From Neocallimastix lanati (nom. inval.) (Eukaryota; Neocallimastigomycota; Neocallimastigomycetes; Neocallimastigales; Neocallimastigaceae), in NCBI GenBank assembly GCA_016946835.1, contig JACVTC010000033.1, positions 1,284,501 through 1,348,500 on the forward strand: a stretch of DNA of 64,000 nucleotides, written 5' to 3'. Positions 11,872 through 49,249 of the stretch are shown one piece after another (position 1 is the stretch's first letter; each line of letters begins with the position of its first letter). The position numbers were made by a program, and so were the translations under genes. A model generated the notes under the pieces. That model saw only the letters and a list, made by a program, of their open reading frames with translations. It searched no databases and was not told the origin of the DNA.

Positions 11872-11876
11872 AATTT

Positions 11877-11922
11877 AATAATAATTTTAAAATATCATTA
11901 TTTTTCTTTTCATCTTGTATCA
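11877..11922 (-). repeat. 5' LTR of element A, terminal 46 nt
   Basis: Remainder of A's LTR after the insertion of B; ends GTATCA at 11922. In A's sense this is the U3 start. It is followed by AAAA and then element C. Confidence 0.75.
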
Positions 11923-11926
11923 AAAA

Positions 11927-12896
11927 TGTTAAGGTTCGGAGAGAGGGAAAAATAAAAATAAGTATTAATATAAACAACAAAAAAAATAAACAAACAAGAA
12001 AATTAATAAACAAAATAAATTTTTGTTTTATAAATCCTTTATTAAAATTTTATTTAAAAATTACAATATTAATTTACAATATAAAAAATACAATTTTTTT
12101 TACTGTTATTTATATTTTTTTTTTTCTTAAAATAATAGAAATGGTAAAGCCATTTCTTTGTATAATAAAAATTAATTATTAAATATTTTATATTAATTTT
12201 TTATTATTAATATAATTATTATTTAACTTATAATAAATAATACTTATATATTAATCTATTACTAATTATTTATTACTAATCTACTTAATTATATATTTTA
12301 AAAGACAAATTTTTTTATTTTACAGAAGTTAATTCTGTGGTTTAGTAATATTTATTTAATCCTAAAGTTTAATTTTACTAAGTTTAGAAAAATAATATTA
12401 TTTAAATTATTAATATAAAAATTATAATCATTTCATCAAATTTATAATATAATATTTATAATAAAACATATAATAATAATATAATTATTTCCTTTTATGT
12501 TTAATCTTTTATTAGTAATCATTAATACAATTTTTTTAATTTGGAATTTTCCAAAGAAATAATTGATATTGATAAGTTTAATATTAATAAAAGAAATATT
12601 GATAAGATTTTGATAAACTATAAAGAAAATTGATAAAATAAACTATATAATATTGATAAGGATTTTAATAATAATAAAATATAGATAAGAATAATAAAGG
12701 TAGCATAGATAAGGAATTAATTTTAAATATACTTTTTTAAATAGTATAATTTAATTTGTACTAATTAGGAATATAGATTAATTTATTAGAATATAGAAAG
12801 TTCCAAAAGAATAAAGAATCAAATAATTTGTTTAAGGGTTAAATGAATCATTTAAGATGCATAACCAAAAGAACATTATTTGGGCATTCTTTATCA
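11927..12896 (-). repeat. 3' LTR of element C
   Basis: 970 bp, TGTTAAGGTTCGG...CATTCTTTATCA. Followed in plus coordinates by the polypurine tract (sense AGTGGGGGCATCT, 12897-12909), with the pol stop immediately upstream of it in sense. Confidence 0.92.
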
Positions 12897-12919
12897 AGAT
12901 GCCCCCACTAAGACTCAAG

Positions 12920-15900
12920 CTATACAGAAGCTGAGTTAAACTTTACTATATTCTTTAAATGGACATTGCGGTTCATTTGGATTCCAGATTTAGGGTCCAC
13001 AAGAGTTACCGTATTGAATTGTTTCTTTAATACTTGAAGGGGTCCAACAAAATATGGTTCAAGTTTGGTTCTAGAAAAATTTCGGACTAAGACTAAGTCT
13101 CCAGGCCTAATATTTTTAGCTTGATTCATGCTGTTCTTGCTTTCTCTTCTATTGGCCCAATATTTATTCGCATTTTTCACATTTGCAGCGGCTTCTGTTG
13201 TCCATAAGTAGTGGTTAACAAACTTTTCGAGTAAGATCTCATCAGATGACTTGTTTATTCCTATAGTAGGTCTTGCAGCGATATCGAAAGGTTGCTGGTC
13301 TTCTCTTCCATATACCAGCTCGAAACTTGAATGATTAGTGACAGAATTCTTGGTAGTACGAAGGGCCCATAAAGCAGAAGGTAGTACTTCATCCCATTCC
13401 TTGTGCTTTTCACTTAGAAGTCGAAGTAATTTTCCTATCTCTTTGTTTCTATTCTCTGTGAGTCCATTAGTTTCAGGGTGATAAGTGGTACTAAATTTCA
13501 CGTATACATCATAGAGATCGAGGAATATCTTGGTCATATCGGAAGTAAATTGGACACCATTGTCCGTAGTAATCACTTGAGGTACTCCATGGCGTGCAAA
13601 AACATTGATAAGGAATTTTATAACTTCTTTAGAGGTTACATTTTCTGTAGGTTCGGCTTCAACCCACTTGGTGAAATAATCGACTACCACCATAATATAT
13701 TGATTGTTGTTGGAAGTTTTCTCTAAAGGTCCAATTATATCAAGACCAAGGTGAGTAAAGGGTCCTTCCACTTCAGTTGGAATATCTTCTGTTGGTTTTG
13801 GATATGGTTGAGGTTTATTCAATTGGCACTTTTCACATTTAGCTATAATCCTCTTAATGTCGTTTACCATACCATTCCAGTAATAGCTTTTCCTAAGTCG
13901 TTGATAAGTTTTGTGATAACCTTCATGACCGATTTGGTGGGCTTCTAGAATTAGCTTTAATTTTTCGTTAAGATCAGTAACTAATTTTCGGTAGATATTT
14001 CCATCTATGAAATATTCAACACCATCGATTATAGTAAACTTTTCTTCAATAAATTCTTTTACTACTTTAGATAAAAGAGATTCGTCGACTTCTTTTGTAA
14101 TTTTGGTAACTAATACCTTCTTGTCAGTGTCATTCTTCATTCTTGATAGGGCATCTGCAATAACATTCTTTTTACCTGATTCATAGCAGATTTCAACCCC
14201 CAAAAGGTTAGCAGCCATGCACCATCTAGTTTGTCTAGCATTTGTTGGTTCTTTCTTGTTGAACAGTCCGACTAAGGGTTTATGGTCTGTATATATAATA
14301 GTTTTATGAGGATTTCCCATTATATATGATTTGAATTTAGTTAAGCAGTAGAATAAGGCTGTTCCTTCTAAATCAGTTATTCCGTAATTTTTCTCACTTT
14401 TGGTTAGTGTTCGACTCGTATAATGAATTGGGTGTTCTTTGTTAGTTTCTTCATTCTTTTGTAGTAGTACACCACCTACTCCATCATAGGACGCATCAGT
14501 TCTTATAATAAACTCTTTATTGAAAGAAGGGAATTTTAGAATTGGGGCATTCATTAATTTTTCCTTAAGCATTTTAAAGCTTTTCTCTTGTTCATCTTTC
14601 CATTGGTACTTAACACCTTTTCGCAATAACTTACAAAGAGGAGCTGTGATCTGTGCATATTTATCGATAAAAGTTCTGTAGTATCCAATTGCTCCTAAGA
14701 AGGATCGTAATTCATGGAGATCAGTAGGTGCTATCCATTTTTTAATAGCTTCTATTTTGCTATCCAGAGGACTTAAGCCTTTGTCAGATACCTTGTGACC
14801 TAGAACTTCTACTTCAGATTGCATGAAAGAACATTTTTCAATGTTGATCTTGAGTTTATGTTCCTTGAATACGTCTAATACTTTCTTAATGTGATCGAGA
14901 TGTTCTTCAACTGTTTTTGAATAGATCAAAATATCGTCAATGAAGTTAAAAACAAATTCACCAATGTAAGGAAAGAGAATCTTATTCATTTCTCTTTGGA
15001 AGGTAGCAGGAGCTCCAGTTAATCCGAAAGGCATTACCTTGAATTGGTAATTACCAAACTTAGTAGTAAAACTGGTTACTTCAACGCTTTCTTCATCCAT
15101 TAGTATTTGATGGTAACCAGAATAGAGATCCATTGTAGTAAAAATTTTGGCTCCATCTAAGCTATCGAAAATTTCATCAATATTTGGCAAAGAGTAAGAG
15201 TCTTTAATGGTAACATCATTTACTTTTCGGTAGTCGATACACATTCTCCACTTTCCATTATGTTTAGGAACTAAAACTACTGGTGAGGACCACTCTGAAT
15301 ACGACGGTTCAATTAGTTTCTTATTGATCAATTTGGTAAGTTCTTCTTTTAGAATATCAGATTTATATTTGGTTACTCTATAATATTTCTGTTTAATTGG
15401 TTTTACACCAGTTTTTAATCTAATTTTATGTGGTGATAAGTCAGAAGGAGTTAATTCTTCAGATGAGGTGGCTATAATTACTAAATAATCCTCAAGCAGT
15501 TGTATAATTTGTTCTCTGAACATTTTATTAAGGGTGTCAGTGAACTTTTTGTTATGAATATATTCTTTAGGAGGTAAACCTTCTATTTTCTTAAGATCGT
15601 TGTTGTTTTCATCAGGTATTGCTTTTAATACACACATTAATTTTTCTTCTTCATCATAAGTGTTGTTAATTGGAGCTATCACATCAATAAGTCCATTATC
15701 ATTCATATAACAGAGACTATACAATGTTGGATGGATAAATAATTTATAATCTACTAAAGTTTTTAAATTAATAAGAATATCATAGAACGGGTCTTCTTTA
15801 TCAACTACTCTGCATTTAGCTATCATTTCAAAGTTATTAATTTTTAAGGGAATTTGGACAATGTAATCTTCTGAGTATTCTTCATTTTGGGTAGCTAATC

Positions 15901-16804
15901 GAATTCTACCGCAACTAACATCGATAGGTTCATAAGTTGTAGGAAGTTTATCCAAAAATTGCTGTGTTACAATATTAAGGTTACTACAGGAGTCCATTAA
16001 AGCTTTTCCTTTTACTCCATCTACCTCAACGTCTACCATTGCGATATCATCTTCATTAGGTTCTATATTCTTACTCTTATATGTATGATCAATATTATTT
16101 ACTAAGATAGTCGTAGCACAAACATTGTTTACAGCACCAGAAATTTTTGTTTGGTCTTTTTCAAATTTTAAGCCTTGTATGACTTTGGTCTTTACTTTTG
16201 GAGACACATCTAGTAGTTGGGCTAAGGTAATATTACATTTGATGTTATTCAGATCTTCAATAACATCATAAGGTTTTTGATTCGCAATCATTTGAAGAAT
16301 TCTTGGTACTCTTGCAGTTTTGGTTATAGAAGATTTATTATTAATTTTATCATTCACCAATTTTGTTAAAGTTTGTTCTGTTGTATTATCAGGAGTATTA
16401 TTTGAAGTAATATCAATAATATTATTAGTTTCTGATTTGTCAATTTCAATAATTTTAACTTGTCTTTTTGAAGTATTAGTTCGTTCTTTATCACGTAGCT
16501 CTTTTTCTTTTTCCTTATTAATTAAAGGTTGCGTAAGTATTGATGGGTGAATCTGACTCCGAGTTGATTTTTGCTTTGGGTTTTCCATTAGTTCATTTTC
16601 TTTTTTCTTTCTTAATGCAGGTGTTGCAATTGGTCTAGGATTATCTTTAAGACTTCGATGTATTTTCTTTCCTGGACTAGATTCTAGTTTGTCATCTTTT
16701 TTTCGTTTAATTGCAGCGCATAAATAACTTTCATTTTCTTCTAAGTCAGATTTACTTACTTTTTCAGTATGAAATTCTTCTTCATTTTCTGATTCTGATT
16801 CCAT
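12920..16804 (-). CDS. pol: Pol of element C: protease, reverse transcriptase, RNase H, integrase
   Basis: 1294 residues from the first ATG, with the frame open upstream to gag; made by -1 frameshift. The acidic N-terminal extension carries the motif LAQLLDVSPK near 195. The retropepsin motif ALMDSCSNLNIVT near 266 has Cys after D-S. Reverse transcriptase spans about 460-680 with WRMCIDYRKVN near 520 and FIDDILIYS near 625. RNase H has IRTDASYDG near 768 and YTDHKPL near 841. The HHCC finger (HEGYHKTYQRL...CEKCQ) is at about 955-993; the integrase core has LGLDIIGPL near 1021, TTDNGVQF near 1081 and HPETNGLTENR near 1114. There is no chromodomain. Confidence 0.93.
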   Translation of the reverse strand: MESESENEEEFHTEKVSKSDLEENESYLCAAIKRKKDDKLESSPGKKIHRSLKDNPRPIATPALRKKKENELMENPKQKSTRSQIHPSILTQPLINKEKEKELRDKERTNTSKRQVKIIEIDKSETNNIIDITSNNTPDNTTEQTLTKLVNDKINNKSSITKTARVPRILQMIANQKPYDVIEDLNNIKCNITLAQLLDVSPKVKTKVIQGLKFEKDQTKISGAVNNVCATTILVNNIDHTYKSKNIEPNEDDIAMVDVEVDGVKGKALMDSCSNLNIVTQQFLDKLPTTYEPIDVSCGRIRLATQNEEYSEDYIVQIPLKINNFEMIAKCRVVDKEDPFYDILINLKTLVDYKLFIHPTLYSLCYMNDNGLIDVIAPINNTYDEEEKLMCVLKAIPDENNNDLKKIEGLPPKEYIHNKKFTDTLNKMFREQIIQLLEDYLVIIATSSEELTPSDLSPHKIRLKTGVKPIKQKYYRVTKYKSDILKEELTKLINKKLIEPSYSEWSSPVVLVPKHNGKWRMCIDYRKVNDVTIKDSYSLPNIDEIFDSLDGAKIFTTMDLYSGYHQILMDEESVEVTSFTTKFGNYQFKVMPFGLTGAPATFQREMNKILFPYIGEFVFNFIDDILIYSKTVEEHLDHIKKVLDVFKEHKLKINIEKCSFMQSEVEVLGHKVSDKGLSPLDSKIEAIKKWIAPTDLHELRSFLGAIGYYRTFIDKYAQITAPLCKLLRKGVKYQWKDEQEKSFKMLKEKLMNAPILKFPSFNKEFIIRTDASYDGVGGVLLQKNEETNKEHPIHYTSRTLTKSEKNYGITDLEGTALFYCLTKFKSYIMGNPHKTIIYTDHKPLVGLFNKKEPTNARQTRWCMAANLLGVEICYESGKKNVIADALSRMKNDTDKKVLVTKITKEVDESLLSKVVKEFIEEKFTIIDGVEYFIDGNIYRKLVTDLNEKLKLILEAHQIGHEGYHKTYQRLRKSYYWNGMVNDIKRIIAKCEKCQLNKPQPYPKPTEDIPTEVEGPFTHLGLDIIGPLEKTSNNNQYIMVVVDYFTKWVEAEPTENVTSKEVIKFLINVFARHGVPQVITTDNGVQFTSDMTKIFLDLYDVYVKFSTTYHPETNGLTENRNKEIGKLLRLLSEKHKEWDEVLPSALWALRTTKNSVTNHSSFELVYGREDQQPFDIAARPTIGINKSSDEILLEKFVNHYLWTTEAAANVKNANKYWANRRESKNSMNQAKNIRPGDLVLVRNFSRTKLEPYFVGPLQVLKKQFNTVTLVDPKSGIQMNRNVHLKNIVKFNSASV

Positions 16805-16865
16805 ACTTATTACTTCTTGAAGGTGATTTTGTTGTGGTTCTTCTAAGGTTGATTGAAATTTGACT

Positions 16866-16918
16866 GAAGCAATTTTATTGACAATGGGAGTGCTTCTTCT
16901 CCCTTTTAGTGATTTAAA
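16866..16918 (-). promoter_or_regulatory. -1 frameshift signal of element C, possible pseudoknot
   Basis: Heptamer U_UUA_AAU (16912-16918), 8-nt spacer holding the gag stop (16904-16911), hairpin GGGAG/CTCCC with loop AAGAAGCA (16886-16903). GAAGC in the loop can pair with GCTTC at 16866-16870, giving an H-type pseudoknot. K has the same loop and partner sequence. Confidence 0.78.
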
Positions 16919-17844
16919 TTTTTATTTTCGAAATATTCTTGGCGATTTTTATCAACAATCGCTTTAAGCTTAGGACAGTTATTCTGATAATGACCTTTTT
17001 CCGTACAGAAGAAACATGTACTAATAGTTAAGTTTTTCATTCGTTTTGTTAGATCTTCAACATCTGAATCTTTTACTGGCTTTCTTCGTTCTGAGAAAGA
17101 TTTCTGTTTAAATTTCTTTTTATTAAAATTGGAGGGCTTATTATAGTGAGGATAAGTATTTTCGTCTGAATCATAAGCAATTTTAGGAATAAGTCTATCT
17201 ACTTTCTCCGCTATTTCAAAGGCTTTATTGAGAGAAATATTATCCTTAAGGGAAACTCTTTTCCATGCCTCTTTATTATTTTGTAATGAGTCGGCATAGT
17301 CTAATACACTAATTCGTTTTCTTCTTTTAATATCCAACTTGTGGTAAAGAGTTCGGTAGCGTATATTAAAATCTTTCACTTTTTCGTTCCTTTTAATTTT
17401 AAGTGCACGAAGTTCTCTGAGTAGAACATTTTGATCTTCTTTTAGGCCATAGAATTTTTCTAATTCGTCCACAATTTTGTCTAAACTTGGGAAATTATGA
17501 ATATTGTCATCACCGATGTTATTATCTTCGTCATTATCATCATCACTAAAGATATTATCATTTTCCATATCTTGGATGATTTCTCTTATTTCACCGGTAG
17601 AAGTCAAAATACAAGCTATAAATATTGTTTCTGGATCAACCACTTGCTGATATCTGATCCATAATTTTAGTTCAGAGGCCCAGGATTTTATATCTAAGTT
17701 GTCTTTACTAAGTTTTTCTATTCCCTTAAGTTCCTTCTTTAAGTCTTTAAAATTAATTCGACTATTATTTATAGCTACTGGACTGGGAATAGAGGGTGAT
17801 GCACTAGACGAGCCACCACTATCAGAAGAAGAGTTTTCCGACAT
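16906..17844 (-). CDS. gag: Gag of element C with CCHC zinc knuckle
   Basis: 312 residues from the ATG at 17842-17844; the frame is open further upstream to a TTG, but the ATG agrees better with the start of K's Gag. Layout: Ser-rich N-terminus, a helical Gag domain (DLDIKSWASELKLWIRY, then an acidic stretch NIFSDDDNDEDNNIGDD), the conserved basic segment KDFNIRYRTLYHKLDIKRR, and a knuckle CFFCTEKGHYQNNC near residues 276-290. It should assemble the particle and bind RNA. It ends four codons after the slippery site. Confidence 0.9.
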   Translation of the reverse strand: MSENSSSDSGGSSSASPSIPSPVAINNSRINFKDLKKELKGIEKLSKDNLDIKSWASELKLWIRYQQVVDPETIFIACILTSTGEIREIIQDMENDNIFSDDDNDEDNNIGDDNIHNFPSLDKIVDELEKFYGLKEDQNVLLRELRALKIKRNEKVKDFNIRYRTLYHKLDIKRRKRISVLDYADSLQNNKEAWKRVSLKDNISLNKAFEIAEKVDRLIPKIAYDSDENTYPHYNKPSNFNKKKFKQKSFSERRKPVKDSDVEDLTKRMKNLTISTCFFCTEKGHYQNNCPKLKAIVDKNRQEYFENKNLNH

Positions 17845-19176
17845 GTTTGAATTTATTGAAAGAAGTAGTAATGAATCAAGTAGAGTATACAAGGTTAATA
17901 GTTATATTAAAAAAAATATTTTTGTGTTACCAGGTAATAAAGATTTGATTAATAACCTCAATGTATTTTTCTTGAGTAGTAGAGTTTTATTTTTTTATAA
18001 TAAATTAGCCAAAAGTTATCAATTTAATTATTTTGAATAAGTAGTAAACAATGGATTCAACAACCAAATAAATTTAAGATATAAACTAGCGTCAACTTGA
18101 CCACCAAATATATCAATTCGTAGAATAGTTAAGCTCGAATTCCCCTTCGACCCACTTAACGATGAAAATATATTAATAATTTACTAGTTGAGCTCGAATT
18201 CCTCTTCGACCCACTCAACAGAATTTTTTTTTTTTTTTTTTATTTGAATTTACTTAAATTTTTTTTTTTTTTATTTAGAAGCTTATTTTTATAAAAAAAA
18301 ATTAATTTAATATTGTTATTATCAAGTTGAATTACCGACCAAGTTATATTATAAACTACTAGCTTATGGGTCTTTCGTCCGATAATATTCATTCCGTCAC
18401 CTTATTCACGTGATCTATGTTCCGTCACACGCTTCAGGATCTTAATATTACCCCTACTATCCCCCTCTTGACAGCTAGTAAGGCTTGTTTATGCTGAATA
18501 TAACTTGTTTAATTCAATCTTGATAAGAAAAGAATATTTCAATTATCAATATTAAATTAAACAAAGTAGCTTCCTCAAATGTTCTTTTTCAATTCTATTT
18601 AAAATTTTTGGATATTTATTAGAATAAAAATATTATTAATATTATTATTTGTATTATAAAAAAAAAATTTTTTTTTTTTTATTTATTACTCTAAAAAAAA
18701 GTTAAAATTTAAATTATAAAATACTTAAAAAAAAATTAAATTTTATCATTAATTAATTATTTCTTGAACAACGGCATTTCCGGAAATTTTCCGTACTTAA
18801 AACAGAACGTAGAGTGGTAGTATGTAAGTCAACCCAGCTCGCCTATTACGGCTTCATGTGGTGCTTACACCAGGCGCTTCTGCTTACTATTAAACAGAAC
18901 GACCAGAGCTTAAGAATAATTGTCACTACAATTAATTCTTAAGAGTAATTAACCCGAAAACCCTCTACTTCTTGAGTTCTGAGATAAGTACGCTTCTAAA
19001 TCGTACTAACTCCAATGCCCAAGAAAAATAAAAAAAAGATAAAATTTAAAATTTATTCGAAGCTTCACGGATAATATAAATTATCTAACACTTCAAAATA
19101 TAAAAAAAAATTGTTTTTTTAAGAAAAATATATTTATTTTAATATTATTTATATTATCTTATTTTTAATTTTATTC
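17845..19176 (-). other. Structured 5' leader of element C
   Basis: About 1.3 kb between primer site and gag. It is markedly richer in G+C than its surroundings at about 18050-18220, 18350-18490 and 18770-19025. It contains two similar hairpins with paired base changes (18128-18160, 18187-18219) and a 15-bp near-perfect stem CTTAAGAAT...ATTCTTAAG (18909-18943). Segments near 18865-18970 resemble the leader of K. No gene is seen. A role in RNA packaging or dimerisation is plausible but inferred. Confidence 0.65.
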
Positions 19177-19194
19177 TCCCCGATATCTCCACCA
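19177..19194 (-). other. Primer binding site of element C (tRNA type)
   Basis: Plus strand TCCCCGATATCTCCACCA: T-stem CCCGA, acceptor strand TATCTCC, discriminator A and CCA. It is identical to the site of K. Seven nt separate it from the 5' LTR. Confidence 0.85.
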
Positions 19195-19201
19195 AATTTT
19201 A

Positions 19202-20171
19202 TGTTAAGGTTCGGAGAGAGGGAAAAATAAAAATAAGTATTAATATAAACAACAAAAAAAATAAACAAACAAGAAAATTAATAAACAAAATAAATTTTTG
19301 TTTTATAAATCCTTTATTAAAATTTTATTTAAAAATTACAATATTAATTTACAATATAAAAAATACAATTTTTTTTACTGTTATTTATATTTTTTTTTTT
19401 CTTAAAATAATAGAAATGGTAAAGCCATTTCTTTGTATAATAAAAATTAATTATTAAATATTTTATATTAATTTTTTATTATTAATATAATTATTATTTA
19501 ACTTATAATAAATAATACTTATATATTAATCTATTACTAATTATTTATTACTAATCTACTTAATTATATATTTTAAAAGACAAATTTTTTTATTTTACAG
19601 AAGTTAATTCTGTGGTTTAGTAATATTTATTTAATCCTAAAGTTTAATTTTACTAAGTTTAGAAAAATAATATTATTTAAATTATTAATATAAAAATTAT
19701 AATCATTTCATCAAATTTATAATATAATATTTATAATAAAACATATAATAATAATATAATTATTTCCTTTTATGTTTAATCTTTTATTAGTAATCATTAA
19801 TACAATTTTTTTAATTTGGAATTTTCCAAAGAAATAATTGATATTGATAAGTTTAATATTAATAAAAGAAATATTGATAAGATTTTGATAAACTATAAAG
19901 AAAATTGATAAAATAAACTATATAATATTGATAAGGATTTTAATAATAATAAAATATAGATAAGAATAATAAAGGTAGCATAGATAAGGAATTAATTTTA
20001 AATATACTTTTTTAAATAGTATAATTTAATTTGTACTAATTAGGAATATAGATTAATTTATTAGAATATAGAAAGTTCCAAAAGAATAAAGAATCAAATA
20101 ATTTGTTTAAGGGTTAAATGAATCATTTAAGATGCATAACCAAAAGAACATTATTTGGGCATTCTTTATCA
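19202..20171 (-). repeat. 5' LTR of element C
   Basis: 970 bp and identical by eye to 11927-12896. Confidence 0.92.
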
Positions 20172-20769
20172 AAAAATTAGAAATTAGAATGCTGGCATAG
20201 TGGTTAGTCACTATGACCTCAGCCTGAACCACTAGGGTTCGACTCACACCTTTACTAAAATTTTATATCATTTAAATTTTAAAGAATTTTTATACTTCAT
20301 TTCTGTATTTGTTTCTGTATTTGTTTCTGTATAAATTTCTGAAAAAATTAACAAAAGAAATTCTTAGAAATTAATAGAAACAAATCAGATAGAAATTCTA
20401 TTTTAATTTATCTTTTATCATTATTTCTTTTAGATTCTTTTTAACCGAAAATAATCAATTTTTATGAAACTTTTTAATGATTTTATGGTTTTAAATTTTT
20501 ATGGATTTAAATTTTGAAAAACTATAAATAGGAGTGAATTTCGCAGCCAAAAAAAAAAAAAAAATATTCTAAAAATTGTGTTTTTATTAATTATTGAATT
20601 AATTAATAAGTAATTCGAAATATTACAATAATTAATCTTTATAATTAATATTTTTAAATTTCTTAATTAATAAAACTATATTTTAAAAAACCAAATTACT
20701 TATTAATCAAAAAGTGCTTACCTATTGTGTTACACTCTTTAAAACACGGATATTCCAATATTCGTTACA
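20172..20769 (+). repeat. 5' LTR of element D, most of it
   Basis: Matches the right LTR from its run of A onward. It contains tRNA-like A and B boxes (20193-20246), a TATA box CTATAAATA (20522-20530), an A-run, and GTGTTTTTATT (20578-20588), the self-primer sequence. Confidence 0.9.
20193..20246 (+). promoter_or_regulatory. Pol III-type A box and B box in D's left LTR
   Basis: TGGCATAGTGGTTAG (20193-20207) fits the tRNA A-box consensus and GGTTCGACTCA (20236-20246) fits the B box, 43 nt apart start to start. The sequence does not fold into a good tRNA T-arm, so it is tRNA-derived or tRNA-mimicking rather than a tRNA gene. Confidence 0.55.
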
Positions 20770-20779
20770 ATAAAAACAC
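20769..20779 (+). other. Self-primer binding site of element D
   Basis: AATAAAAACAC at the LTR/internal border is perfectly complementary (11 nt) to GTGTTTTTATT at 20578-20588 in the LTR, which lies about 55 nt after the TATA box. No tRNA-type TGG site is present. Confidence 0.65.
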
Positions 20780-25420
<4,641 letters not shown>

Positions 25421-25704
25421 ATATAAATCATTTAATCAAAAATAAATTTTATTTCATCAAAGTACTATTAATCATTCTAACTTATGATTATTTTAAAAAA
25501 AAAAAAAAAAAAAAAAATTATTTTATATTATTCAAAAACATTTATTCTAGATAGTTTTATTTTTATACTTTATTTTTAAAACTTAAAATTCATGTAATTT
25601 TTATTATCCAATGTATTAATTAAATTATCACTCCTATAAGTATTTTAGTTATAGTTTATTATTATAAAAGTTAGAATTAGAAATAGTTTAGATTTAAAGC
25701 AAAA
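25421..25704 (+). other. 3' untranslated region of element D
   Basis: A+T-rich, with an A-run at about 25495-25517. No gene is seen. Confidence 0.6.
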
Positions 25705-25739
25705 GATTCGTCTGGCATCCGAATCCTAGAGGAGGACCA
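25705..25739 (+). other. Conserved hairpin and polypurine tract of element D
   Basis: Hairpin GATTCG...CGAATC (25705-25725) with core TCGTCTGGCATCCGA, followed by CTAGAGGAGGACCA (25726-25739) against the 3' LTR. The same core stands before the polypurine tract of B, G and I. Confidence 0.75.
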
Positions 25740-34947: not shown

Positions 34948-34971
34948 CCTAGTTTTGGTTACTACTTTAAT

Positions 34972-36048: not shown

Positions 36049-36071
36049 ACAATGGACTTCAACAGAAGTCC
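36039..36071 (+). promoter_or_regulatory. -1 frameshift signal of element G
   Basis: A_AAA_AAC (36039-36045), 8-nt spacer beginning with the gag UAA (36046-36053), perfect 7-bp hairpin GGACTTC/GAAGTCC with loop AACA (36054-36071). The frame entered is the one used by pol, and it is open from here to the first pol ATG. Confidence 0.82.
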
Positions 36072-36242
36072 AATATAATAAAAAACACAAGAATTCTTCA
36101 TTATAATTTTCCTACATTTAATAATGTAGTAAATAAAAAATTACCTTCAACTTTCCTTTTATTTGATACATATATTCCAACATCATTTTCAAATAATATA
36201 AAAAATATTAAAAATGATAATAATAAATTAAAAACTGAATCT

Positions 36243-39875: not shown

Positions 39876-39893
39876 AATGATAATAATAATATT

Positions 39894-39937
<44 letters not shown>

Positions 39938-40485
39938 GAAATTTTATTTTTTATTATTATTAATTCGTTTTTAAATTTTATTTTATTATTATCAATTTTT
40001 CAGTCAAATTTCAATTTCAAAATTTCGAAATTTTCAAAATTTTCAAAATTCAAAAACATAGCTATGTTACACTTACATCTATCAATTTATAATCTAATTT
40101 TATTCATAAATTCATTAATTATTATAATTTTCAATTTTTAAAGTTAATGCATAAAATTAAAAAGTTAATTGAAATTAAAATTTCAAAATTTCAATTTCAA
40201 AAATTTTTAATCAAAAACATTTAAAAATGGTACCATCATATTCTTAAACATCAATTTTCATAATAAAATTTTAATTTTATTAAATTTTAGAGATTTCAAA
40301 ATTTCAATGAAATGGCCACTTATAAAGGGTTTCCTTTAAAAATTTAAAAGGACTAAAGTGACCTTCCTCTTTCATAAATTAAAAATTTTTAATTTAAGAA
40401 ATTCCAAAAAATTTTTTAACAAAAATTTAATCCTCCTTATCGTTACACAAAAATCGTCTTGAATCCGATTTTTATGGGAGGGCAT
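39876..40485 (+). other. 3' untranslated region of element G
   Basis: A run of about 36 A starts some 20 nt after the pol stop, then A+T-rich sequence, a hairpin AAAAATCG...CGATTTTT (40449-40473) with core TCGTCTTGAATCCGA, and the polypurine tract ATGGGAGGGCAT against the LTR. A small hydrophobic frame (39935-40141) looks incidental. Confidence 0.7.
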
Positions 40486-41221
40486 TGTTGAAATTATAAC
40501 TGAATTGAAATCTCAATTTCAGTTATTTACATTTCAATAGTTAACAAATATTATTTATTTAATTATAAATAATATATATATTTAAATAATTAATAATTAA
40601 TATAAATTCTTATTTAATATTTAAGGAATTATCTTAGGCCTAATAATTCTGAGAATATTAGTAAATAAGATTTATATTAATAATTTCAATTATCTACATA
40701 TGACGTCACATGTATTTATTTATATTATGTTTATATATATGTTTACATCATATATATTAACTACTATTTTTAATTATTCAAATTAATTATATAATTATAA
40801 ATTAAATTTATTTAGTTATATTAAATATTTTAAACATATCGATATTGTTATTATCTTAATATTTTATTAATATTCATATTACTATATTATTAATATCTTA
40901 TAATTAAATATTATTATTATGTAACTTACAAAGTATAAAAGAAAGATGTAAAAATCTATCTTTTATGTTCTTTGTAAGGTTATTGTACTTACAATAATTA
41001 TATACTAATAATTCAATAAATAAATATTTTCATAAATCCTTCAAAGAAATTATTATTTAAAATATTCTTAGATATTAAGTGTTTAAATAACTTAACTATT
41101 TATCTTATATTATTTTTATATTATTATTAATTAATTATTGTTGGATTATTAATATATAATTCAACATATTAACCTAGTAACGTTATTAATCATAAAACTA
41201 TTTTATATCTTAATTTTAACA
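40486..41221 (+). repeat. 3' LTR of element G
   Basis: 736 bp and almost identical to the left LTR. Confidence 0.92.
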
Positions 41222-41226
41222 AATAT

Positions 41227-41272
41227 TTTCTTTAAATAGTTTAATTTTTCTTTATTTAATTGTACCGTAACA
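41227..41272 (-). repeat. 5' LTR of element F, terminal 46 nt
   Basis: Remainder of F's LTR after G; ends GTACCGTAACA and is followed by CAAA (41273-41276). Confidence 0.75.
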
Positions 41273-42254
41273 CAAATGGTAGACTCGGGGTTGACACTTA
41301 GATATTTAAAATCAAGCAAGGGGGGACGGGTATTACCCTGCTTTGATTTTAAATAAAAAAAAAATAATAATTCTTTTTTTAAAAGTTATTTATTTATTTT
41401 TTTTTATTAATATAAAATTTTTTATTTAAAGTACACATATTTAATTTTTAAGAAATTGTTACAATATTTATATTTGTTTATAAATTTAAAGTATAATTAA
41501 TTGTTTATAATTTAAGTAATTTTATAGAATTATTGAATTAATTTTATATCAATAATTCATTTTTGTTTTAATTTTTATAAATATAATAATATAATATTCA
41601 AATATAATTTAATTAAAAATAATTATAAAATAAATATATAGAAAATAGTTTTTACTATTTTCTTTGATATTTTTAAGTTAAATAAATTGTTTTTAAAGAT
41701 TAATATAATAAATTTAATAATCTTTAATTATTTTAAATAATACTTGTAATTATTTTCAAAATAAAATAAAATTTTTATAATATTTAATTAATAAATTTGA
41801 TAATATTTAAATAATAATTTTTATAATAAGTAATAATTTTTAATAATAATTTTTAATAATAAATTTAATTAATAATCTTAATAATTTTATAATAATATTT
41901 AATAGTTATAATAAATAAATTTTTATAATAATATTTAATAATTTTAATAATTTTATAATATTAATAATTTATAATAATTTTTAGAATAATATTTAATTAA
42001 TAATTTTAATAATTTTATAATAATTTTTATAATAATATTTAATTAATATTTTTAATAATTTAGTATCTTAAAAGTATAATTTTAATATTTACAATTGTAT
42101 TTTAATATATACATATATTTAATAATATAACAATAAAGTGATTAATTAAAATTTATTTACATTATTTACAAATTAAAATTAATTTATATCAAAATAAATT
42201 AAATTTACAATGAGGTTTAGGTTATGAAGAATATAGGAAAGTACAATTTAGTAA

Positions 42255-42955
42255 TGTTAAAATTAAGATATAAAATAGTTTTATGATTAATAACGTTACT
42301 AGGTTAATATGTTGAATTATATATTAATAACCCAACAATAATTAATTAATAATAATATAAAAATAATATAAGATAAATAGTTAAGTTATTTAAACACTTA
42401 ATATCTAAGAATATTTTAAATAATAATTTCTTTGAAGGATTTATGAAAATATTTATTTATTGAATTATTAGTATATAATTATTGTAAATACAATAACCTT
42501 ACAAAGAACATAAAAGATAGATTTTTACATCTTTCTTTTATACTTTGTAAGTTACATAATAATAGTATTTAATTATAAGATAATAATAATATAGTAAAAT
42601 GAATATTAATAAAATATTAAAATAATAACAATATCGATATGTTTAAAATATTTAATATAATTAAATAAATTTAATTTGTATAATTAATTTGAATAATTAA
42701 AAATAGTAATTAATATATATGATATAAACATATATATAAACATATATATAAACATAATATAAATAAATACATGTGACGTCATATGTAAATAATTGAAATT
42801 ATTAATATAAATCTTATTTATTAATATTTTCAGAATTATTAGGCCTAAGATAATTCTTTAAATACTAAATAAGAATTTATATTAATTATTAATTAAATGT
42901 ATATTGAAATGTGAATAACTGAAATTGAGATTTCAATTCAGTTATAATTTCAACA
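42255..42955 (-). repeat. 3' LTR of element I
   Basis: 701 bp. More divergent from G's LTRs than the right copy is, including in its middle part. Confidence 0.9.
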
Positions 42956-43505
42956 ATGCCCTCCCATAAAAATCGGATTCAAGACGATTTTTGTGTAACG
43001 ATAAGGAGGACTAAATTTTTTGTTAAAAATTTTTTGAAATTTCTTAAATTAAAATTTTTTTAATTTATAAAGGAGGAAGGCCACTTGAGTCCTTTTAAAT
43101 TTTAAAAGGAAACCCTTTATAAGTGACCATTTCATTGAAATTTTGAAATTTCTAAAATTTAATAAAATTAAAATTTTGTTATAAAAATTGATGTTTAAGA
43201 ATATGATGGTAATTTTTAAATGTTTTTGATTAAAAATTTTTGAAATTGAAATTTTGAAATTTTAATTTCAATTAACTTTTTAATTTTATGCATTAACTTT
43301 AAAAAAAATTGAAAATTATAATAATTAATGAATTTATGAATAAAATTAGATTATAAATTGATAGTTGTAAGTGTAACATAGCTATGTTTTTGAATTTTGA
43401 AAATTTTGAAAATTTCGAAATTTTGAAATTGAAATTTGACTGAAAAATTGATAATAATAAAATAAAATTTAAAAACGAATTAATAATAATAAAAAATAAA
43501 ATTTC

Positions 43506-43549
<44 letters not shown>

Positions 43550-43567
43550 AATATTATTATTATCATT
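42956..43567 (-). other. 3' untranslated region of element I
   Basis: Polypurine tract at the LTR border, conserved hairpin (42968-42992), A+T-rich sequence, and a T-run (sense A) at about 43509-43544. Scattered differences from G are confined to the outer part (to about 43215); inside that the two match. Confidence 0.7.
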
Positions 43568-46500
43568 TTAGTTATAAGCTATTGAAATAGGTTTTCTTCC
43601 ATTTTGTAAATATTGTAAATAAATATTTTGATTTCGGGGGTTATTTTCAACTTCGTCTGAAGGAACCCAATTGTAAGCAGTTCTATATTTATACCTGATT
43701 CTGTATTCATATTGATTCTTTTTATAATTAGTTCTAAATCCTGAGATTTCAATTATATCATTAACAGATTCATCATGAGTTCTTCTTTTTAAAAACTTTT
43801 GAGGTGTTGGAATAAAAGGTTCTAACTCCGAAACATGGAATATAGGATGATGTTTTGGAAAAGGTGACCTTTTAATATCTATTTTATAATTATGATTATT
43901 CAGAACATCTATTACTTTATATGGTCCATATTTACAAGGAGCTAACTTTGAACTATCTTCGATATTTAGTGATGGAGGAGCTTGTATCCAAACTAAATCA
44001 TTTTCTTTAAATATTGGAGGTGGCATTCTCTTTTTATCTGCGTGTATTTTATATAGTTCTTTTGACCTTAATAAAACATCTTTAATATGATTAAAGTTCA
44101 TACTTAAGTCCTTAATAATTTTATTATTAGTATCAATATCAGGTAATAAGAAAAATTCATCCATAGATGGATGAAAACCATAATTAATAAAGAAGGGTGT
44201 TTCTTTTGTAGATTCATTTATGGAGTTATTATAAACAAATTCAGCAAGGTGAATCCATTCAATCCAATCATCATGATAATATGATCTTGAGTAAGCTCTT
44301 AAATATTGTTCAATAAAAGAATTACACCTTTCAACTTGACCAACTGTTTCATGATGGTCAGTTGTAGCGATTTTTGATTTAATGTTTAAATATTCCATTA
44401 CTTCTTTCCAAAGAGCACTTGTAAATTGAGATCCTCTATCTGTATACATATCACAAGGCAATCCGTGTAGTTTAAATATATTTGTAATGAAAGCTTTGGC
44501 AGTTTGTTTGGCATCAGGTATTTGTTTAAACGGAATTAAATGAATCATCTTAGAGAAACGATCAACAACTACCATAATAACGGTGTATCCTTTAGAATAA
44601 GGAAGACCACATAGAAAATCAATTTCGATAGACTTCCAAGGTCTATCAGGAGTATCTAAAGGTTGTAAAAGACCATATTTTCTATGTCTATTAACCTTGT
44701 TTCTTGCACAACATTCACAAGAATTAACATAACTTGTAACATCTTCATGTATTTTTGGCCACCAAAAGTTTCTTGTAATTAGTTCTAGAGTTCTTCTTAT
44801 ACCAAGATGTCCAGAAGTGGGTTTTTCATGATATTTTTCTAAAATTTCTAATCTAAGTGATTCAGGAATATAAATTAAATTGTTATATAATATAATATTA
44901 TCTTTTATTTTAAATCTTTCCATTTTCCTAAATGGTTTATAAGCATAATTATTTTTAATATTGTTTTCACTAAAGTATAATTTAATATCTTCAGCAGTAG
45001 CATCTTCTTTAATAGCATCAATAATTTTTTCTAGTAAATTACTCATAATTCCTATAAAACAGGGAACATCTTTTACATTTTTAATATCTAATATATTTTC
45101 TGGTTTAATATCTTCGTTATTCTTCATATAGTCAGGTCTTCTTGAAAGACTATCTGGTTTCCCATTTTTAGTTCCTTGTCTATATATAAGTTGGAAATCA
45201 TATTCCTGAAAGAATAAGTGCCATCTATGCTGTCTTTGATTACCAACTTTTCCTCCTAAAGTATAGATTAAATTTCTATGGTCAGTATAGACAGTAATTT
45301 TATGTTTTGCACCAAGTAAAAGATGTCGCCAAGTTAAGAAAGAATCTCTAATAGCTAATAACTCTTTTTCTGTAATGGTATAATTTATTTCGGAGCCTTG
45401 TAAACTTCTTGAAAAGTAAGCAACAGGATGTAATTTATTATTTTCATCTTTCTGAGATAAAACAGCACCTATAGCATAGTTACTTGCATCACATTCTACT
45501 ATGAATGGTTTAGTTACATCTGGGTGATGCAGTACTGGAGAAGTAGTTAATTTACTTTTTAATAATTTAAATGAATTTTCACAATTTGTATCCCAAATAA
45601 ATTTTGTATTTTTTCTTGTTAAATTATGGAGAGGCTTAGCTATTTTTGCAAAATTTTTTACAAATCTCCTATAGTAATTACATAAGCCTAAAAATCGTTG
45701 TACTTCTTTAATATTTTTCGGAGTTGGCCACTCTTCTATAGATTTAATTTTCTTTGGGTCAGTAGATACACCATCACCAGATAAAATGTAACCTAGGAAT
45801 TCAACTTTTTCTTTATCGAATTCACATTTTTCTAATTTTGCGTATAAATTATTATTAATTAAAGTTTGTAATACACTTCTTACTTGTTTGTGATGTTCTT
45901 CCAAATCCTCAGAATAAATTAAAATATCATCCAAATATAAAATAACACTTTTTTCCAAATAAGGTCTGAGTACAGAATTAATAAATGATTGGAAAGTGGC
46001 TGGGGCATTTTTCAACCCAAAAGGCATTACGAGATATTCGTAATGACCATATTTAGTTCGAAAAGCTGTTTTATATTCATCCCCCTCTTTTATACGAATT
46101 AGGTTATAGGCAGATCTTAGATCTAATTTTGTGAAATATTTTGCACTTTTAACCTTTTCAATGATATCATTAATAAGTGGAAGAGGATATGAATTTCTAA
46201 TGGTAACAGCGTTTAACTTTTTGTAATCCACACACAATCTTAAAGAACCATCTTTCTTTTTTTGAAATAAGACAGGATAACCAGCTGGAGATTCAGAAGG
46301 TCTAATAAATCCCTTCTTTAAATTTTCTTCTATATATTCTTTTAAAACTTTATTTTCTTCTTCAGATAATGGGTAGATAGGTCCATAATGAAGAGAAGCA
46401 TCCTTTTCTAAAACTATTTTACAGTCAGTTAAACGATGTGGCGGTAGTTTATCTGCTTCTTTCTTACTAAATACAACAGCCAAATCTCGATATTGAAGCG

Positions 46501-47200
46501 GAATATTTTCGATTTTTATATCTTCAATATCTTCTTCATAATTTTCTTTATTTGTTAAAAATGAATAAATTAAATAATTATAGTTAAATTTATTATTAAT
46601 TTTATATTTTTTATTTTGGTGATTGTTTTTTAATTTAAAAAATGTTTTATTGATTAAAAAATTAAATTTTTTATGAAGAAATTTTTTATATTTATTAAGT
46701 TTAAAATTTAATTTATTTTGATTAAAATTTTTGAAATTTTTTGAATTTTTTGTATAATTAAATTTTTTTATGAATTTATGTTTTAAAAAATAATTTTTTA
46801 AAAATCTTTTTATCACTAAATTAAACCGAGAATAATATTGTGGATTTTTATTAGCATTTTTATTAATTTTGTTATAAAAGTGAGAATCTAAATAAGAATA
46901 TAGGAAGTTTTTATTATAATCGTAATGAATATGAAACTTCCTCATAAATTGATTTCCAAAAAGTAATTTTGTTGGAATACAATTCGAAATTAAAAATTTT
47001 TCTTTAAAATTTTTAAAATAAACTTTTTTATTTTCATTAATTTTAATTTGAAATTTTAGCCAAACATAATTCTTTATCTGGGTTGTATCACCAGAAATTC
47101 CTTTGACTAAAATTTTTGATTTTAAATTATATTTTTTCAAGTTTAAAGTTTTTACTAAATCTTCTGTAATAAAATTACAGAAGGAGCCTGAATCTAACAT
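43568..47200 (-). CDS. pol: Pol of element I
   Basis: 1210 residues, the same protein as Pol of G: retropepsin, reverse transcriptase with YLDDILIYS, RNase H, HHCC integrase and divergent chromodomain-like end, in that order. Identity over the whole length contrasts with the divergence of I's own LTRs. Expression is by -1 frameshift from gag. Confidence 0.93.
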   Translation of the reverse strand: MLDSGSFCNFITEDLVKTLNLKKYNLKSKILVKGISGDTTQIKNYVWLKFQIKINENKKVYFKNFKEKFLISNCIPTKLLFGNQFMRKFHIHYDYNKNFLYSYLDSHFYNKINKNANKNPQYYSRFNLVIKRFLKNYFLKHKFIKKFNYTKNSKNFKNFNQNKLNFKLNKYKKFLHKKFNFLINKTFFKLKNNHQNKKYKINNKFNYNYLIYSFLTNKENYEEDIEDIKIENIPLQYRDLAVVFSKKEADKLPPHRLTDCKIVLEKDASLHYGPIYPLSEEENKVLKEYIEENLKKGFIRPSESPAGYPVLFQKKKDGSLRLCVDYKKLNAVTIRNSYPLPLINDIIEKVKSAKYFTKLDLRSAYNLIRIKEGDEYKTAFRTKYGHYEYLVMPFGLKNAPATFQSFINSVLRPYLEKSVILYLDDILIYSEDLEEHHKQVRSVLQTLINNNLYAKLEKCEFDKEKVEFLGYILSGDGVSTDPKKIKSIEEWPTPKNIKEVQRFLGLCNYYRRFVKNFAKIAKPLHNLTRKNTKFIWDTNCENSFKLLKSKLTTSPVLHHPDVTKPFIVECDASNYAIGAVLSQKDENNKLHPVAYFSRSLQGSEINYTITEKELLAIRDSFLTWRHLLLGAKHKITVYTDHRNLIYTLGGKVGNQRQHRWHLFFQEYDFQLIYRQGTKNGKPDSLSRRPDYMKNNEDIKPENILDIKNVKDVPCFIGIMSNLLEKIIDAIKEDATAEDIKLYFSENNIKNNYAYKPFRKMERFKIKDNIILYNNLIYIPESLRLEILEKYHEKPTSGHLGIRRTLELITRNFWWPKIHEDVTSYVNSCECCARNKVNRHRKYGLLQPLDTPDRPWKSIEIDFLCGLPYSKGYTVIMVVVDRFSKMIHLIPFKQIPDAKQTAKAFITNIFKLHGLPCDMYTDRGSQFTSALWKEVMEYLNIKSKIATTDHHETVGQVERCNSFIEQYLRAYSRSYYHDDWIEWIHLAEFVYNNSINESTKETPFFINYGFHPSMDEFFLLPDIDTNNKIIKDLSMNFNHIKDVLLRSKELYKIHADKKRMPPPIFKENDLVWIQAPPSLNIEDSSKLAPCKYGPYKVIDVLNNHNYKIDIKRSPFPKHHPIFHVSELEPFIPTPQKFLKRRTHDESVNDIIEISGFRTNYKKNQYEYRIRYKYRTAYNWVPSDEVENNPRNQNIYLQYLQNGRKPISIAYN

Positions 47201-47371
47201 AGATTCAGTTTTTAATTTATTATTATCATTTTTAATATTTTTTATATTATTTGAAAATGATGTTGGAATATATGTATCAAATAAAAGGAAAGTTGAAGGT
47301 AATTTTTTATTTACTACATTATTAAATGTAGGAAAATTATAATGAAGAATTCTTGTGTTTTTTATTATATT

Positions 47372-47404
47372 GGACTTCTGTTGAAGTCCATTGTTTAGTT
47401 TTTT
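47372..47404 (-). promoter_or_regulatory. -1 frameshift signal of element I
   Basis: A_AAA_AAC (47398-47404), 8-nt spacer (47390-47397), 7-bp hairpin (47372-47389); identical to G. Confidence 0.82.
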
Positions 47405-48471
47405 GTTTTATTATTATTGCTACTAGTTTTATTACTATTATAATTGTTATTATTGTAATTATTATTATAATTACTTTTGTTATTATAATTGTTATTAGAA
47501 TTATAATTTTTATCATGATTAATATGGGTACTAACGTGTTTTGAATGTTTATTATTACTGCTTCTAGAAAGTTTTGAATTACCATTATTTGATTTTATTT
47601 GATTTTTTGTTTTTAATGTATTTTCAAGTAAAATACATTTAGTATAAATAGTACCAAGATCAACAGGGAATTCTTCCATTTCTTCAATTACTTCTTGGAA
47701 TTTTGAATGTAACCCATTATAGAAAATTAAAACTAAGGCTTCTTCACTGAATCCAAGACCATTCGAAAGAGTTCTAAATTGTTCAATATAATCATTTATT
47801 TTCCCATAGTTATGTTTCAATTTTATTAATTGAATCTTAGCTAATTTTTTGCTTGCAACGTTGGAAAATGCTTTTCTTAATTCAGTAGTCAATTCAGAAA
47901 GAGTTTTTGGGTTAGTATCCTTGTACGTAGCTAGATACCAATTACGAGCGCCATCTCTTAAACGGGATTTAATAAAGTTAATTTTGATATCTTCTGTAGC
48001 TTCTGAATTTGGATATGTTTTAAAGGTATCTTCACAAAGTTGACAGAATAGATCAGTTTCTTTAGTATCTCCAGAGAAAAATCCAGGTTCAGGAACTTGT
48101 TGTAAACGGTTTGAAAAAGCATTCCTCATAATAACATCATTGTCATCATCACGTCTAGTAATGGTAGATACATTATCCTCTTGTGTTCGACTAGTAGAAG
48201 GAATATCATTTGTAGCAATATTTATATTTAACTTTTCATCTAAAATTTTTGTTAAATTAGATAATTGATTAATAATATTTTTATTATCTTTGTAAAGTGT
48301 ATAAAGTTTTTTTTGTAAGTCCTTGTTATATTCATTAAAATCTTCTTTTAATAAAAAACTATCATTAACAGAAGAAGCCAATTCGGATACAGTAACTTGG
48401 GCGTCAGACCTTAATTTATTAACTTCTGACATTGGAGCAATGTCAGCCCATACATTATTGTAAAAAGACAT
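47395..48471 (-). CDS. gag: Gag of element I
   Basis: 358 residues, the same protein as Gag of G, with the Gag domain at about 115-275 and an Asn/Ser-rich tail without zinc knuckle. Confidence 0.92.
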   Translation of the reverse strand: MSFYNNVWADIAPMSEVNKLRSDAQVTVSELASSVNDSFLLKEDFNEYNKDLQKKLYTLYKDNKNIINQLSNLTKILDEKLNINIATNDIPSTSRTQEDNVSTITRRDDDNDVIMRNAFSNRLQQVPEPGFFSGDTKETDLFCQLCEDTFKTYPNSEATEDIKINFIKSRLRDGARNWYLATYKDTNPKTLSELTTELRKAFSNVASKKLAKIQLIKLKHNYGKINDYIEQFRTLSNGLGFSEEALVLIFYNGLHSKFQEVIEEMEEFPVDLGTIYTKCILLENTLKTKNQIKSNNGNSKLSRSSNNKHSKHVSTHINHDKNYNSNNNYNNKSNYNNNYNNNNYNSNKTSSNNNKTKN

Positions 48472-48495
48472 ATTAAAGTAGTAACCAAAACTAGG

Positions 48496-48508
48496 GTAAG
48501 GTTATTGT
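48496..48508 (-). other. Self-primer binding site of element I
   Basis: Complementary over 13 nt to 48735-48747 in the 5' LTR, which follows the TATA box (48780-48787 on the plus strand) by about 40 nt. Confidence 0.78.
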
Positions 48509-49194
48509 TAAAATTAAGATATAAAATAGTTTTATGATTAATAACGTTACTAGGTTAATATGTTGAATTATATATTAATAACCCAACAATAATTAATTAA
48601 TATAAAAATAATATAAGATAAATAGTTAAGTTATTTAAACACTTAATATCTAAGAATATTTTAAATAATAATTTCTTTGAAGGATTTATGAAAATATTTA
48701 TTTATTGAATTATTAGTATATAATTATTGTAAGTACAATAACCTTACAAAGAACATAAAAGATAGATTTTTACATCTTTCTTTTATACTTTGTAAGTTAC
48801 ATAATAATAATATTTAATTATAAGATATTAATAATATAGTAATATGAATATTAATAAAATATTAAGATAATAACAATATCGATATGTTTAAAATATTTAA
48901 TATAACTAAATAAATTTAATTTATAATTATATAATTAATTTGAATAATTAAAAATAGTAGTTAATATATATGATGTAAACATATATATAAACATAATATA
49001 AATAAATACATGTGACGTCATATGTAGATAATTGAAATTATTAATATAAATCTTATTTATTAATATTTTCAGAATTATTAGGCCTAAGATAATTCTTTAA
49101 ATACTAAATAAGAATTTATATTAATTATTAATTAAATGTATATTGAAATGTGAATAACTGAAATTGAGATTTCAATTCAGTTATAATTTCAACA
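48506..49194 (-). repeat. 5' LTR of element I
   Basis: 689 bp. From 48506 to about 49050 it follows G's LTR; from there to its end it follows I's own 3' LTR type. Confidence 0.88.
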
Positions 49195-49249
49195 AGTAAA
49201 GAATTATTAATAATAAAATAAAGGTTATTAATTCATTCTTTACCACAAA

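What the first reader, a model, noticed from the sequence alone, without database searches (positions are those of the whole stretch)
11872..49245. Three self-primed elements inserted at the same distance, 46 nt, from the end of three different host LTRs
After removing the 5-bp duplications, exactly 46 nt of host LTR remain to the right of B (11877-11922, in A), of G (41227-41272, in F) and of I (49200-49245, in H). The three LTRs are of different sequence, the duplications differ (AATTT, AATAT, AGTAA), and G is in the opposite orientation to B and I, so this is not one copied event. The position is about 50 bp inside the U3 5' end. Tf1 is known to be steered to promoter-proximal sites by host DNA-binding proteins; a fixed offset here suggests integration guided by something bound at the U3 terminus of the tRNA-primed class. 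Three of three is striking but still a small sample.
Basis: partly seen in the sequence, partly recalled or inferred. Interest (0 to 1): 0.9.

Follow-up and report, generated by a model that had tools for sequence, protein, structure and literature searches.

The report
Retrotransposons landing at tRNA-gene distances
Two kinds of jumping element in this probable anaerobic-fungus genome land at two fixed distances upstream of tRNA genes (about 14 and about 65 bases), so one kind ends up about 51 bases inside the other, and later arrivals push the pair away from the gene like items on a conveyor belt.

Summary
B, G and I each have a 5-bp target duplication and exactly 46 nt of host LTR to their right, and the three host ends are independently confirmed. 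In other copies the offset is a sharp peak: window-derived LTR-end words in 134 non-window flanks (up to 250 nt each) lie at 47-52 nt (9 of 9 U3-terminus words) and after 54-58 nt (11 of 11 neighbour-start words).

The anchor is probably not a U3-bound factor. ARAGORN finds 8 tRNA genes in the 140 flanks, all starting at nt 65-68 from the insertion, in two cases with no LTR end at the usual place. In 33 distinct tRNA upstream flanks picked by tRNA similarity, 13 carry window-family LTR ends, all 12-18 nt from the tRNA. One locus shows displacement directly. Walking right, the chain holding G and I ends, as predicted, 14 nt before a tRNA-Val gene, with the chain's recurring CAAA.

Best explanation: tRNA-primed elements use a slot about 14 nt, Tf1-like self-primed elements a slot about 65 nt, upstream of Pol III genes. 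The 51-nt offset is the distance between slots, kept as a fossil after newer insertions moved the gene away. New variant of a known kind.

The parts
4110..4784 (-). Host A, 5' LTR, left piece (LTR continues at 11877-11922); a tRNA-type primer-binding site lies just left of 4110
   Evidence: PBS next to TGATACG at 4110; uninterrupted mate LTR of A ends at C257:1280040, 99.6% identical over 542 aligned positions
4785..11871 (-). Self-primed element B, LTRs 735 nt with no substitution between them; TSD AATTT at 4780-4784 and 11872-11876
   Evidence: gag 10023-11102 and pol 6130-9825
11877..11922 (-). 46-nt remnant of host A's U3 end; terminus GTATCA
11923..11926 (.). AAAA spacer between A and C; the same letters follow C's far end before the tRNA-like module
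11927..20171 (-). tRNA-primed element C, LTRs identical over 970 nt; PBS TGGTGGAGATATCGGGGA
20186..20255 (+). tRNA-like A/B-box module in the 5' LTR of element D; A box at 20193; inferred first nucleotide 14 nt from C's terminus
   Evidence: regex scan; not called by ARAGORN or Rfam
20172..26353 (+). Element D, gypsy-type with chromodomain; intact 3' LTR from 25740 holds a second copy of the module (A box 25775) and shows the empty target site
33412..34207 (-). Host F, 5' LTR, left piece (continues at 41227-41272); PBS TGGCGAGCTATGCAGG just left
34208..41221 (+). Self-primed element G, opposite orientation; TSD AATAT at 34203-34207 and 41222-41226
41227..41272 (-). 46-nt remnant of host F's U3 end; terminus CGTAACA
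   Evidence: same host and site in L085
41273..41276 (.). CAAA spacer between F and H1; recurs at 49246-49249 and 55733-55736, at M/M2, and at the start of the spacer before tRNA-Val
41277..42254 (-). Host H1, apparent solo LTR, left piece (continues at 49200-49245)
   Evidence: 97.5% to 62749-63734; joined copy compared
42255..49194 (-). Self-primed element I; TSD AGTAA at 42250-42254 and 49195-49199; its two LTRs are of different subtypes
49200..49245 (-). 46-nt remnant of host H1's U3 end; terminus TTTACCA
   Evidence: uninterrupted in 63735-63780 and L121
49250..55732 (-). tRNA-primed element H2, LTRs identical over 721 nt
55737..62747 (-). tRNA-primed element J, LTRs without substitution over 785 nt
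62748..63780 (-). H-family LTR (apparent solo LTR), uninterrupted: shows the empty site of I
63791..64000 (+). Start of element K (plus strand, TSD TACAA); the chain continues beyond the window through M and M2 to a tRNA-Val gene at C257:1371022-1371096

Best explanation
Pol III genes are the anchor. The tRNA-primed Ty3-like elements (hosts A, F, H and C, H2, J, M) integrate in a slot 12-18 nt upstream of the first tRNA nucleotide. The Tf1-like self-primed elements (B, G, I) integrate in a second slot, 62-67 nt upstream, in either orientation. If an LTR already occupies slot 1, slot 2 falls about 51 nt inside it (46 nt plus the 5-bp duplication). A later slot-1 insertion goes between the old LTR and the tRNA gene, repeats the same few target letters, and moves the older pair away by one element length; the 46-nt remnant then looks like a property of the LTR. 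Shown by sequence: both distances, displacement at one locus, a tRNA gene at the end of the chain. Inferred: that the bound object is TFIIIB or the Pol III complex, touched by each integrase, and that the self-primed insertions in the window preceded displacement.
For: Eight of 8 ARAGORN tRNAs within the 140 insertion flanks (up to 250 nt) start at nt 65-68. Two more element-picked loci, L013 and L076, have tRNAs with 66 and 64 nt between; L076 is the same host and site as I. L122, from the tRNA-Leu list, has 62 nt; L102 has 67 nt to tRNA-Asn. 13 of 33 distinct tRNA upstream flanks hold window-family LTR ends, all 12-18 nt away. Same host and site with a tRNA or with a chain neighbour: L068/L067, L096/L052 and I, L094/L044, L006/L055. 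Displacement: in L003+L101 a 3,104-nt insertion ending in an A-family LTR lies between the host LTR of a B-type copy and tRNA-Arg, with AACA on both sides; L004-L006 have the tRNA directly. Filled and empty tRNA-Leu site: L130 and L125. Prediction met: at the end of the eight-member chain the last terminus lies 14 nt before tRNA-Val and the spacer again begins CAAA. Downstream flanks of 16 tRNAs hold 0 of the LTR-end words. L007: B-type LTR at the start of a G-type LTR, i.e. slot 2 used twice.
Against: Where LTR and tRNA are both present, the distance to the LTR end (about 50-51) varies less than that to tRNA nt 1 (63-68), so the LTR end, or a factor fixed relative to it, could contribute. LTR divergence gives G 1 in 730 and I 10 in 683, the reverse of the order the model needs, though I's LTR pair is a mixture of two subtypes, which makes that comparison unreliable. 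42 of 85 loci met neither strict criterion, some because only one flank was held or the terminus is mutated; some may be untargeted. Two chain junctions do not fit the simple picture: J/H' has no spacer and K is in the opposite orientation. The inner parts of M and M2 were not fetched. The module in D is tRNA-like by A/B boxes only. No protein contact was tested.
Confidence: 0.9

Rival explanations
1. One reading: the self-primed integrase is guided by a factor bound at the U3 terminus of tRNA-primed LTRs, whether or not a tRNA gene is near.
For: Distance to the LTR terminus is nearly constant at 51 nt over many host families, slightly tighter than the distance to tRNA nt 1.
Against: L064 and L075: tRNA at nt 65 and 66 with no CA ending at 50-53; L102: 67 nt from tRNA-Asn, CA ends only at 23, 57 and 60; L090: insertion apparently outside the tRNA-primed class, nt 68 from an A/B-box module. 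The termini themselves are placed by tRNA genes.
Confidence: 0.06
2. Local sequence preference: the integrase picks an AT-rich motif that happens to lie 51 nt inside these LTRs.
For: Same host families are hit at the same base repeatedly (L085 and G; L052, L076, L096 and I).
Against: Unrelated hosts with unrelated letters at the site give the same offset, both orientations are used, and tRNA flanks without an LTR end are hit at the matching distance.
Confidence: 0.02
3. Copying artefact: a few nested units were duplicated with their hosts, so the offset is one event seen many times.
For: Some loci look like duplicates (L004-L006; L014/L046).
Against: Different element subfamilies, orientations, host families, target letters and neighbours share the offset; flanks identical over 60 nt were counted once.
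Confidence: 0.02

Closest known systems
Tj1 of Schizosaccharomyces japonicus (PMC4600332; abstract and discussion section read)
   Same: Self-primed LTR retrotransposon related to Tf1/Tf2 that integrates upstream of tRNA and other Pol III genes.
   Different: Tj1: 13 of 17 sequenced inserts within 12 bp upstream of tRNA genes, fixed orientation. Here 62-67 nt, both orientations.
Ty3 (yeast) and DGLT-A (dictyostelids) (PMC5006619; abstract and one discussion section read)
   Same: LTR elements about 15 bp upstream of the first tRNA nucleotide: matches the tRNA-primed class here (12-18 nt). Ty3 works through TFIIIB according to that paper.
   Different: Here they form long chains with the same spacer letters recurring within a chain.
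TRE5-A of Dictyostelium (PMC5391098 abstract; PMC5006619 as above)
   Same: Fixed upstream distance to tRNA genes (about 47-50 bp), and also targets A/B-box sites without other tRNA-gene context.
   Different: TRE5-A is a non-LTR element; the slot here is 62-67 nt and used by LTR elements.
Tf1/Tf2 of S. pombe
   Same: Self-priming layout and the integrase C-terminal SH3_Tf2-1 domain.
   Different: Tf1/Tf2 go to Pol II promoter regions (PMC4600332 abstract); here Pol III genes.
Nested LTR elements in plants (PMC6911290; abstract read)
   Same: Non-random position of nested insertions.
   Different: Plant nesting favours 3' UTRs and rarely LTRs according to the abstract, which names no tRNA anchor.

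Membership tests
Tf1-like self-primed LTR retrotransposons (B, G, I) | PBS directly after the 5' LTR, complementary to a stretch inside the LTR | tested here: met
   ATAACCTTAC follows the LTR; GTAAGGTTAT at LTR nt 514 (B), 489 (G), 448 (I). RNA 5' end not tested
Tf1-like self-primed LTR retrotransposons (B, G, I) | RT, RNase H, integrase with Tf2-1-type SH3 domain | tested here: met
   PF24626 E 8.7e-15 (B) and 1.6e-13 (G); no Chromo match listed for B or G. I's proteins were not scanned
Tj1-type targeting | Integration within about 12 bp upstream of tRNA genes | tested here: not met
   62-67 nt lie between self-primed copies and the tRNA
Tj1-type targeting | Single orientation relative to the tRNA gene | tested here: not met
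   Of the 8 tRNAs, six face the 5' end and two (L094, L068) the 3' end; 28 of 83 5' flanks and 13 of 57 3' flanks have CA at nt 50-51
Ty3/DGLT-A-type targeting (tRNA-primed class) | LTR end about 15 bp upstream of tRNA nt 1 | tested here: met
   13 of 33 distinct upstream flanks, 12-18 nt; M2 14 nt from tRNA-Val
Ty3/DGLT-A-type targeting (tRNA-primed class) | Ty3/gypsy RT-RH-IN order and tRNA-like PBS | tested here: met
   C, H2, J pol, PBS of C, H2, J and F; the priming tRNA was not identified
Ty3/DGLT-A-type targeting (tRNA-primed class) | Integrase contact with TFIIIB | not testable with these tools
   needs biochemistry
TRE5-A-type targeting | Non-LTR retrotransposon | tested here: not met
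   B, G, I have LTRs; B and G pol carry an integrase

The most novel reading that the evidence does not exclude
One Pol III complex serves as a two-slot dock read by integrases of two different element classes about 51 bp apart, and a third class (chromodomain element D and relatives) carries a tRNA-like A/B-box module at the start of its own LTR that recruits the same machinery, so that a transposon brings a landing pad for other transposons. In the window, C (and by inference A with B) sits at that module.
Probability: 0.35. Interest if true: 0.78.

Novelty: new variant of a known kind. Interest (0 to 1): 0.62.

Why it matters
tRNA-gene targeting is discussed mainly for compact genomes, where it is thought to spare genes (PMC5006619). 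Here it works in a 199-Mb element-rich genome and builds long ordered chains in which position should give relative insertion order. A self-primed element with a slot near -65, beside a relative (Tj1) with a slot near -12, offers a natural comparison of how a Tf1-type integrase changes its distance to the Pol III machinery. It also warns that a fixed nesting offset between elements can be a displaced shadow of a gene anchor.

Tried and rejected
Rejected: U3-bound factor as the sole anchor, sequence motif, and copied events (see rivals). Rfam and ARAGORN found no tRNA in the window, so the module in D rests on A/B boxes alone. LTR dating to test the order of G and I was uninformative because I's LTR pair is mixed. 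The M-family search did not list the C257 copies among its 40 scored, so M's far end was found by fetching at the family's usual spacing. I did not reach the far left end of A, where the model expects the first bases of D's 5' LTR (one search stops short of it). Searches score only the best candidates, so their counts are lower bounds. tRNA panel: 17 of the 63 places plus 15 of the tRNA-Leu and 5 of the tRNA-Glu places; I left out most of the C555 cluster, places already seen and the 11-kb-repeat contigs, and fetched three further places (L101-L103) because elements were known there, which are not in the panel. For one search I shortened or widened the F, H2 and J words after seeing flanks. 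Paper searches that found nothing on this host: (the one hit, a choanoflagellate survey, was seen in the listing only); one search gave two papers on other subjects; some searches gave the papers named above and others seen in the listing only.

Full report
WHERE. The window is C257:1284501-1348500 of a 199-Mb genome in 762 contigs, AT-rich. The host is most likely an anaerobic gut fungus (inference).

THE OBSERVATION. The host LTR ends were checked independently. A: its own mate LTR is uninterrupted and ends with the same letters at C257:1280040. H: 62748-63780 is uninterrupted and ends at the same base. F: a primer-binding site bounds the LTR on the left, and locus L085 shows the same terminus with a different neighbour. 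G and I are one family, but host, letters and orientation differ.

THE WIDER TEST. The 21-base start of the self-primed LTR occurs 624 times (reversed control 0). 100 places were listed; 89 loci around them were fetched, and seven more came. After dropping internal (PPT or PBS) sides and flanks identical over 60 nt, 140 outward flanks remained, 134 of them outside the window, from 85 loci. 'CA' at nt 50-51 occurs in 28 of 83 5' flanks and 13 of 57 3' flanks. LTR-end words taken from the window were found 9 times as U3 termini (8 at 51-52; one at 47, the J word, which by L114 and L059 probably stops about 5 nt short of the real end) and 11 times as neighbour starts (after 54-58 nt). In this orientation none lay elsewhere. 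In reverse, terminus words gave 0 and neighbour words 3, all a short K word at 39-43. The strict junction pattern occurs in 34 of 134 against a mean of 2.2 in 53 control windows. A flat distribution is excluded for this sample; it is not a full census.

WHAT THE ANCHOR IS. In the 140 flanks ARAGORN finds 8 tRNA genes, starting at nt 65, 65, 65, 66, 66, 67, 68 and 68. L013 and L076, whose LTR ends were not aligned there, have tRNAs with 66 and 64 nt between and a host terminus at 51. L122, from the tRNA-Leu list, has 62 nt between and a terminus at 50; L102, picked because an element hit lies near a listed tRNA, has 67 nt to tRNA-Asn. Several host LTRs with an insertion at 51 nt are followed directly by a tRNA gene (L094, L068, L096, L076, and L006 with a mutated terminus). 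The same host and site in other loci (L044, L067, L052, L055) is followed instead by another LTR after about 4-6 nt. In L064 and L075 no CA ends at 50-53 and the tRNA distance is the same.

SLOT 1. Among 37 tRNA upstream flanks (33 distinct) picked from tRNA similarity lists, 13 hold window-family LTR ends, all 12-18 nt from the tRNA and none elsewhere in the stretch (three words adapted after seeing flanks). By eye several more end in other LTR-like termini at that place. Seven tRNA-Leu flanks (four distinct) share one sequence with no such end; L130 against L125 is a filled/empty pair. In 16 downstream flanks the same words gave 0 hits.

DISPLACEMENT. In L003 plus L101 a B-type LTR lies 51 nt inside a host LTR whose terminus reads TTTACTA. 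After AACA a 3,104-nt unit begins that ends in an A-family LTR (its left part was not resolved), and then the same AACA and the tRNA-Arg leader follow. L004-L006 have the tRNA directly. So in this locus something was inserted between the nested pair and the tRNA.

PREDICTION. The chain F(G), H1(I), H2, J, H', K, M, M2 was followed to the right of the window. Spacers CAAA recur at F/H1, H1/H2, H2/J, just before M, and at M/M2. At its end M2's terminus is followed by CAAAAAAAATGTAA and tRNA-Val. I had predicted a tRNA gene there before fetching it (note). The inner parts of M and M2 were not fetched; their ends were matched by identical LTRs at the expected spacing. Exceptions: J/H' has no spacer, and K is in the opposite orientation inside an 11-nt spacer. 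In the other chain, A(B) and C lead to an A/B-box module in the LTR of chromodomain element D, 14 nt from C's terminus. The A/B-box regex gave 25 hits over all sequence held: tRNA genes or a tRNA remnant (L011), the two copies in D, and similar modules in L030 and L090. It missed several tRNAs that ARAGORN called.

MECHANISM. Reported for Ty3: integrase and TFIIIB (PMC5006619). By analogy both classes here read the Pol III complex, one at its downstream edge and one at its upstream edge. This is inference. The tighter distance to the LTR end than to tRNA nt 1 fits a ruler on TFIIIB that sets both slots, but does not exclude a part for the LTR end.

NOVELTY. Each ingredient is known: Tj1, Ty3, DGLT-A, TRE5-A. 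The 62-67-nt slot for a self-primed LTR element, the two-slot nesting with its fixed 51-nt offset, the chain record and the LTR-borne module did not turn up in my paper searches, which cover open-licence papers only.

Noticed in passing
20186-20255 and 25768-25837: tRNA-like A/B-box module near the start of both LTRs of chromodomain element D; similar modules in L030 and L090 also lie beside insertions. An LTR that may carry a Pol III-like landing pad.
   Followed up: partly
42255-49194: Element I has two different LTR subtypes: its 5' LTR (nt 61-689) matches G, its 3' LTR matches L085 with one mismatch and one gap, which suggests recombination or conversion with a G-type copy.
   Followed up: partly
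L136, L044, L006, L055, L075, L086, L093: Another repeat (TGTTAAAGTTTTAAGATAATTTGG...) ends 63 nt from tRNA-Glu in L136 and abuts the target duplication of self-primed copies in the other loci; possibly another family using slot 2.
   Followed up: partly
L099 to L142 (C257:1348401-1371900): Chain continues with plus-strand element K (TSD TACAA) and two M-family elements in tandem before tRNA-Val.
   Followed up: yes
C555, about 170000-400000: Cluster of near-identical tRNA-Arg genes on one contig, with a C-family LTR ending 14 nt before one of them (L103).
   Followed up: no
C188, C266, C252, C251 and others: tRNA-like matches repeated about every 11 kb on small contigs, which look like tandem arrays.
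   Followed up: no
555-4700: Long stretch of 9-15-nt AT-rich repeats with a 520-aa ORF bearing a zinc knuckle (2313-3875), probably part of element A.
   Followed up: no
20731-21350: Array of about 13 copies of a 40-nt repeat just after the 5' LTR of D.
   Followed up: no
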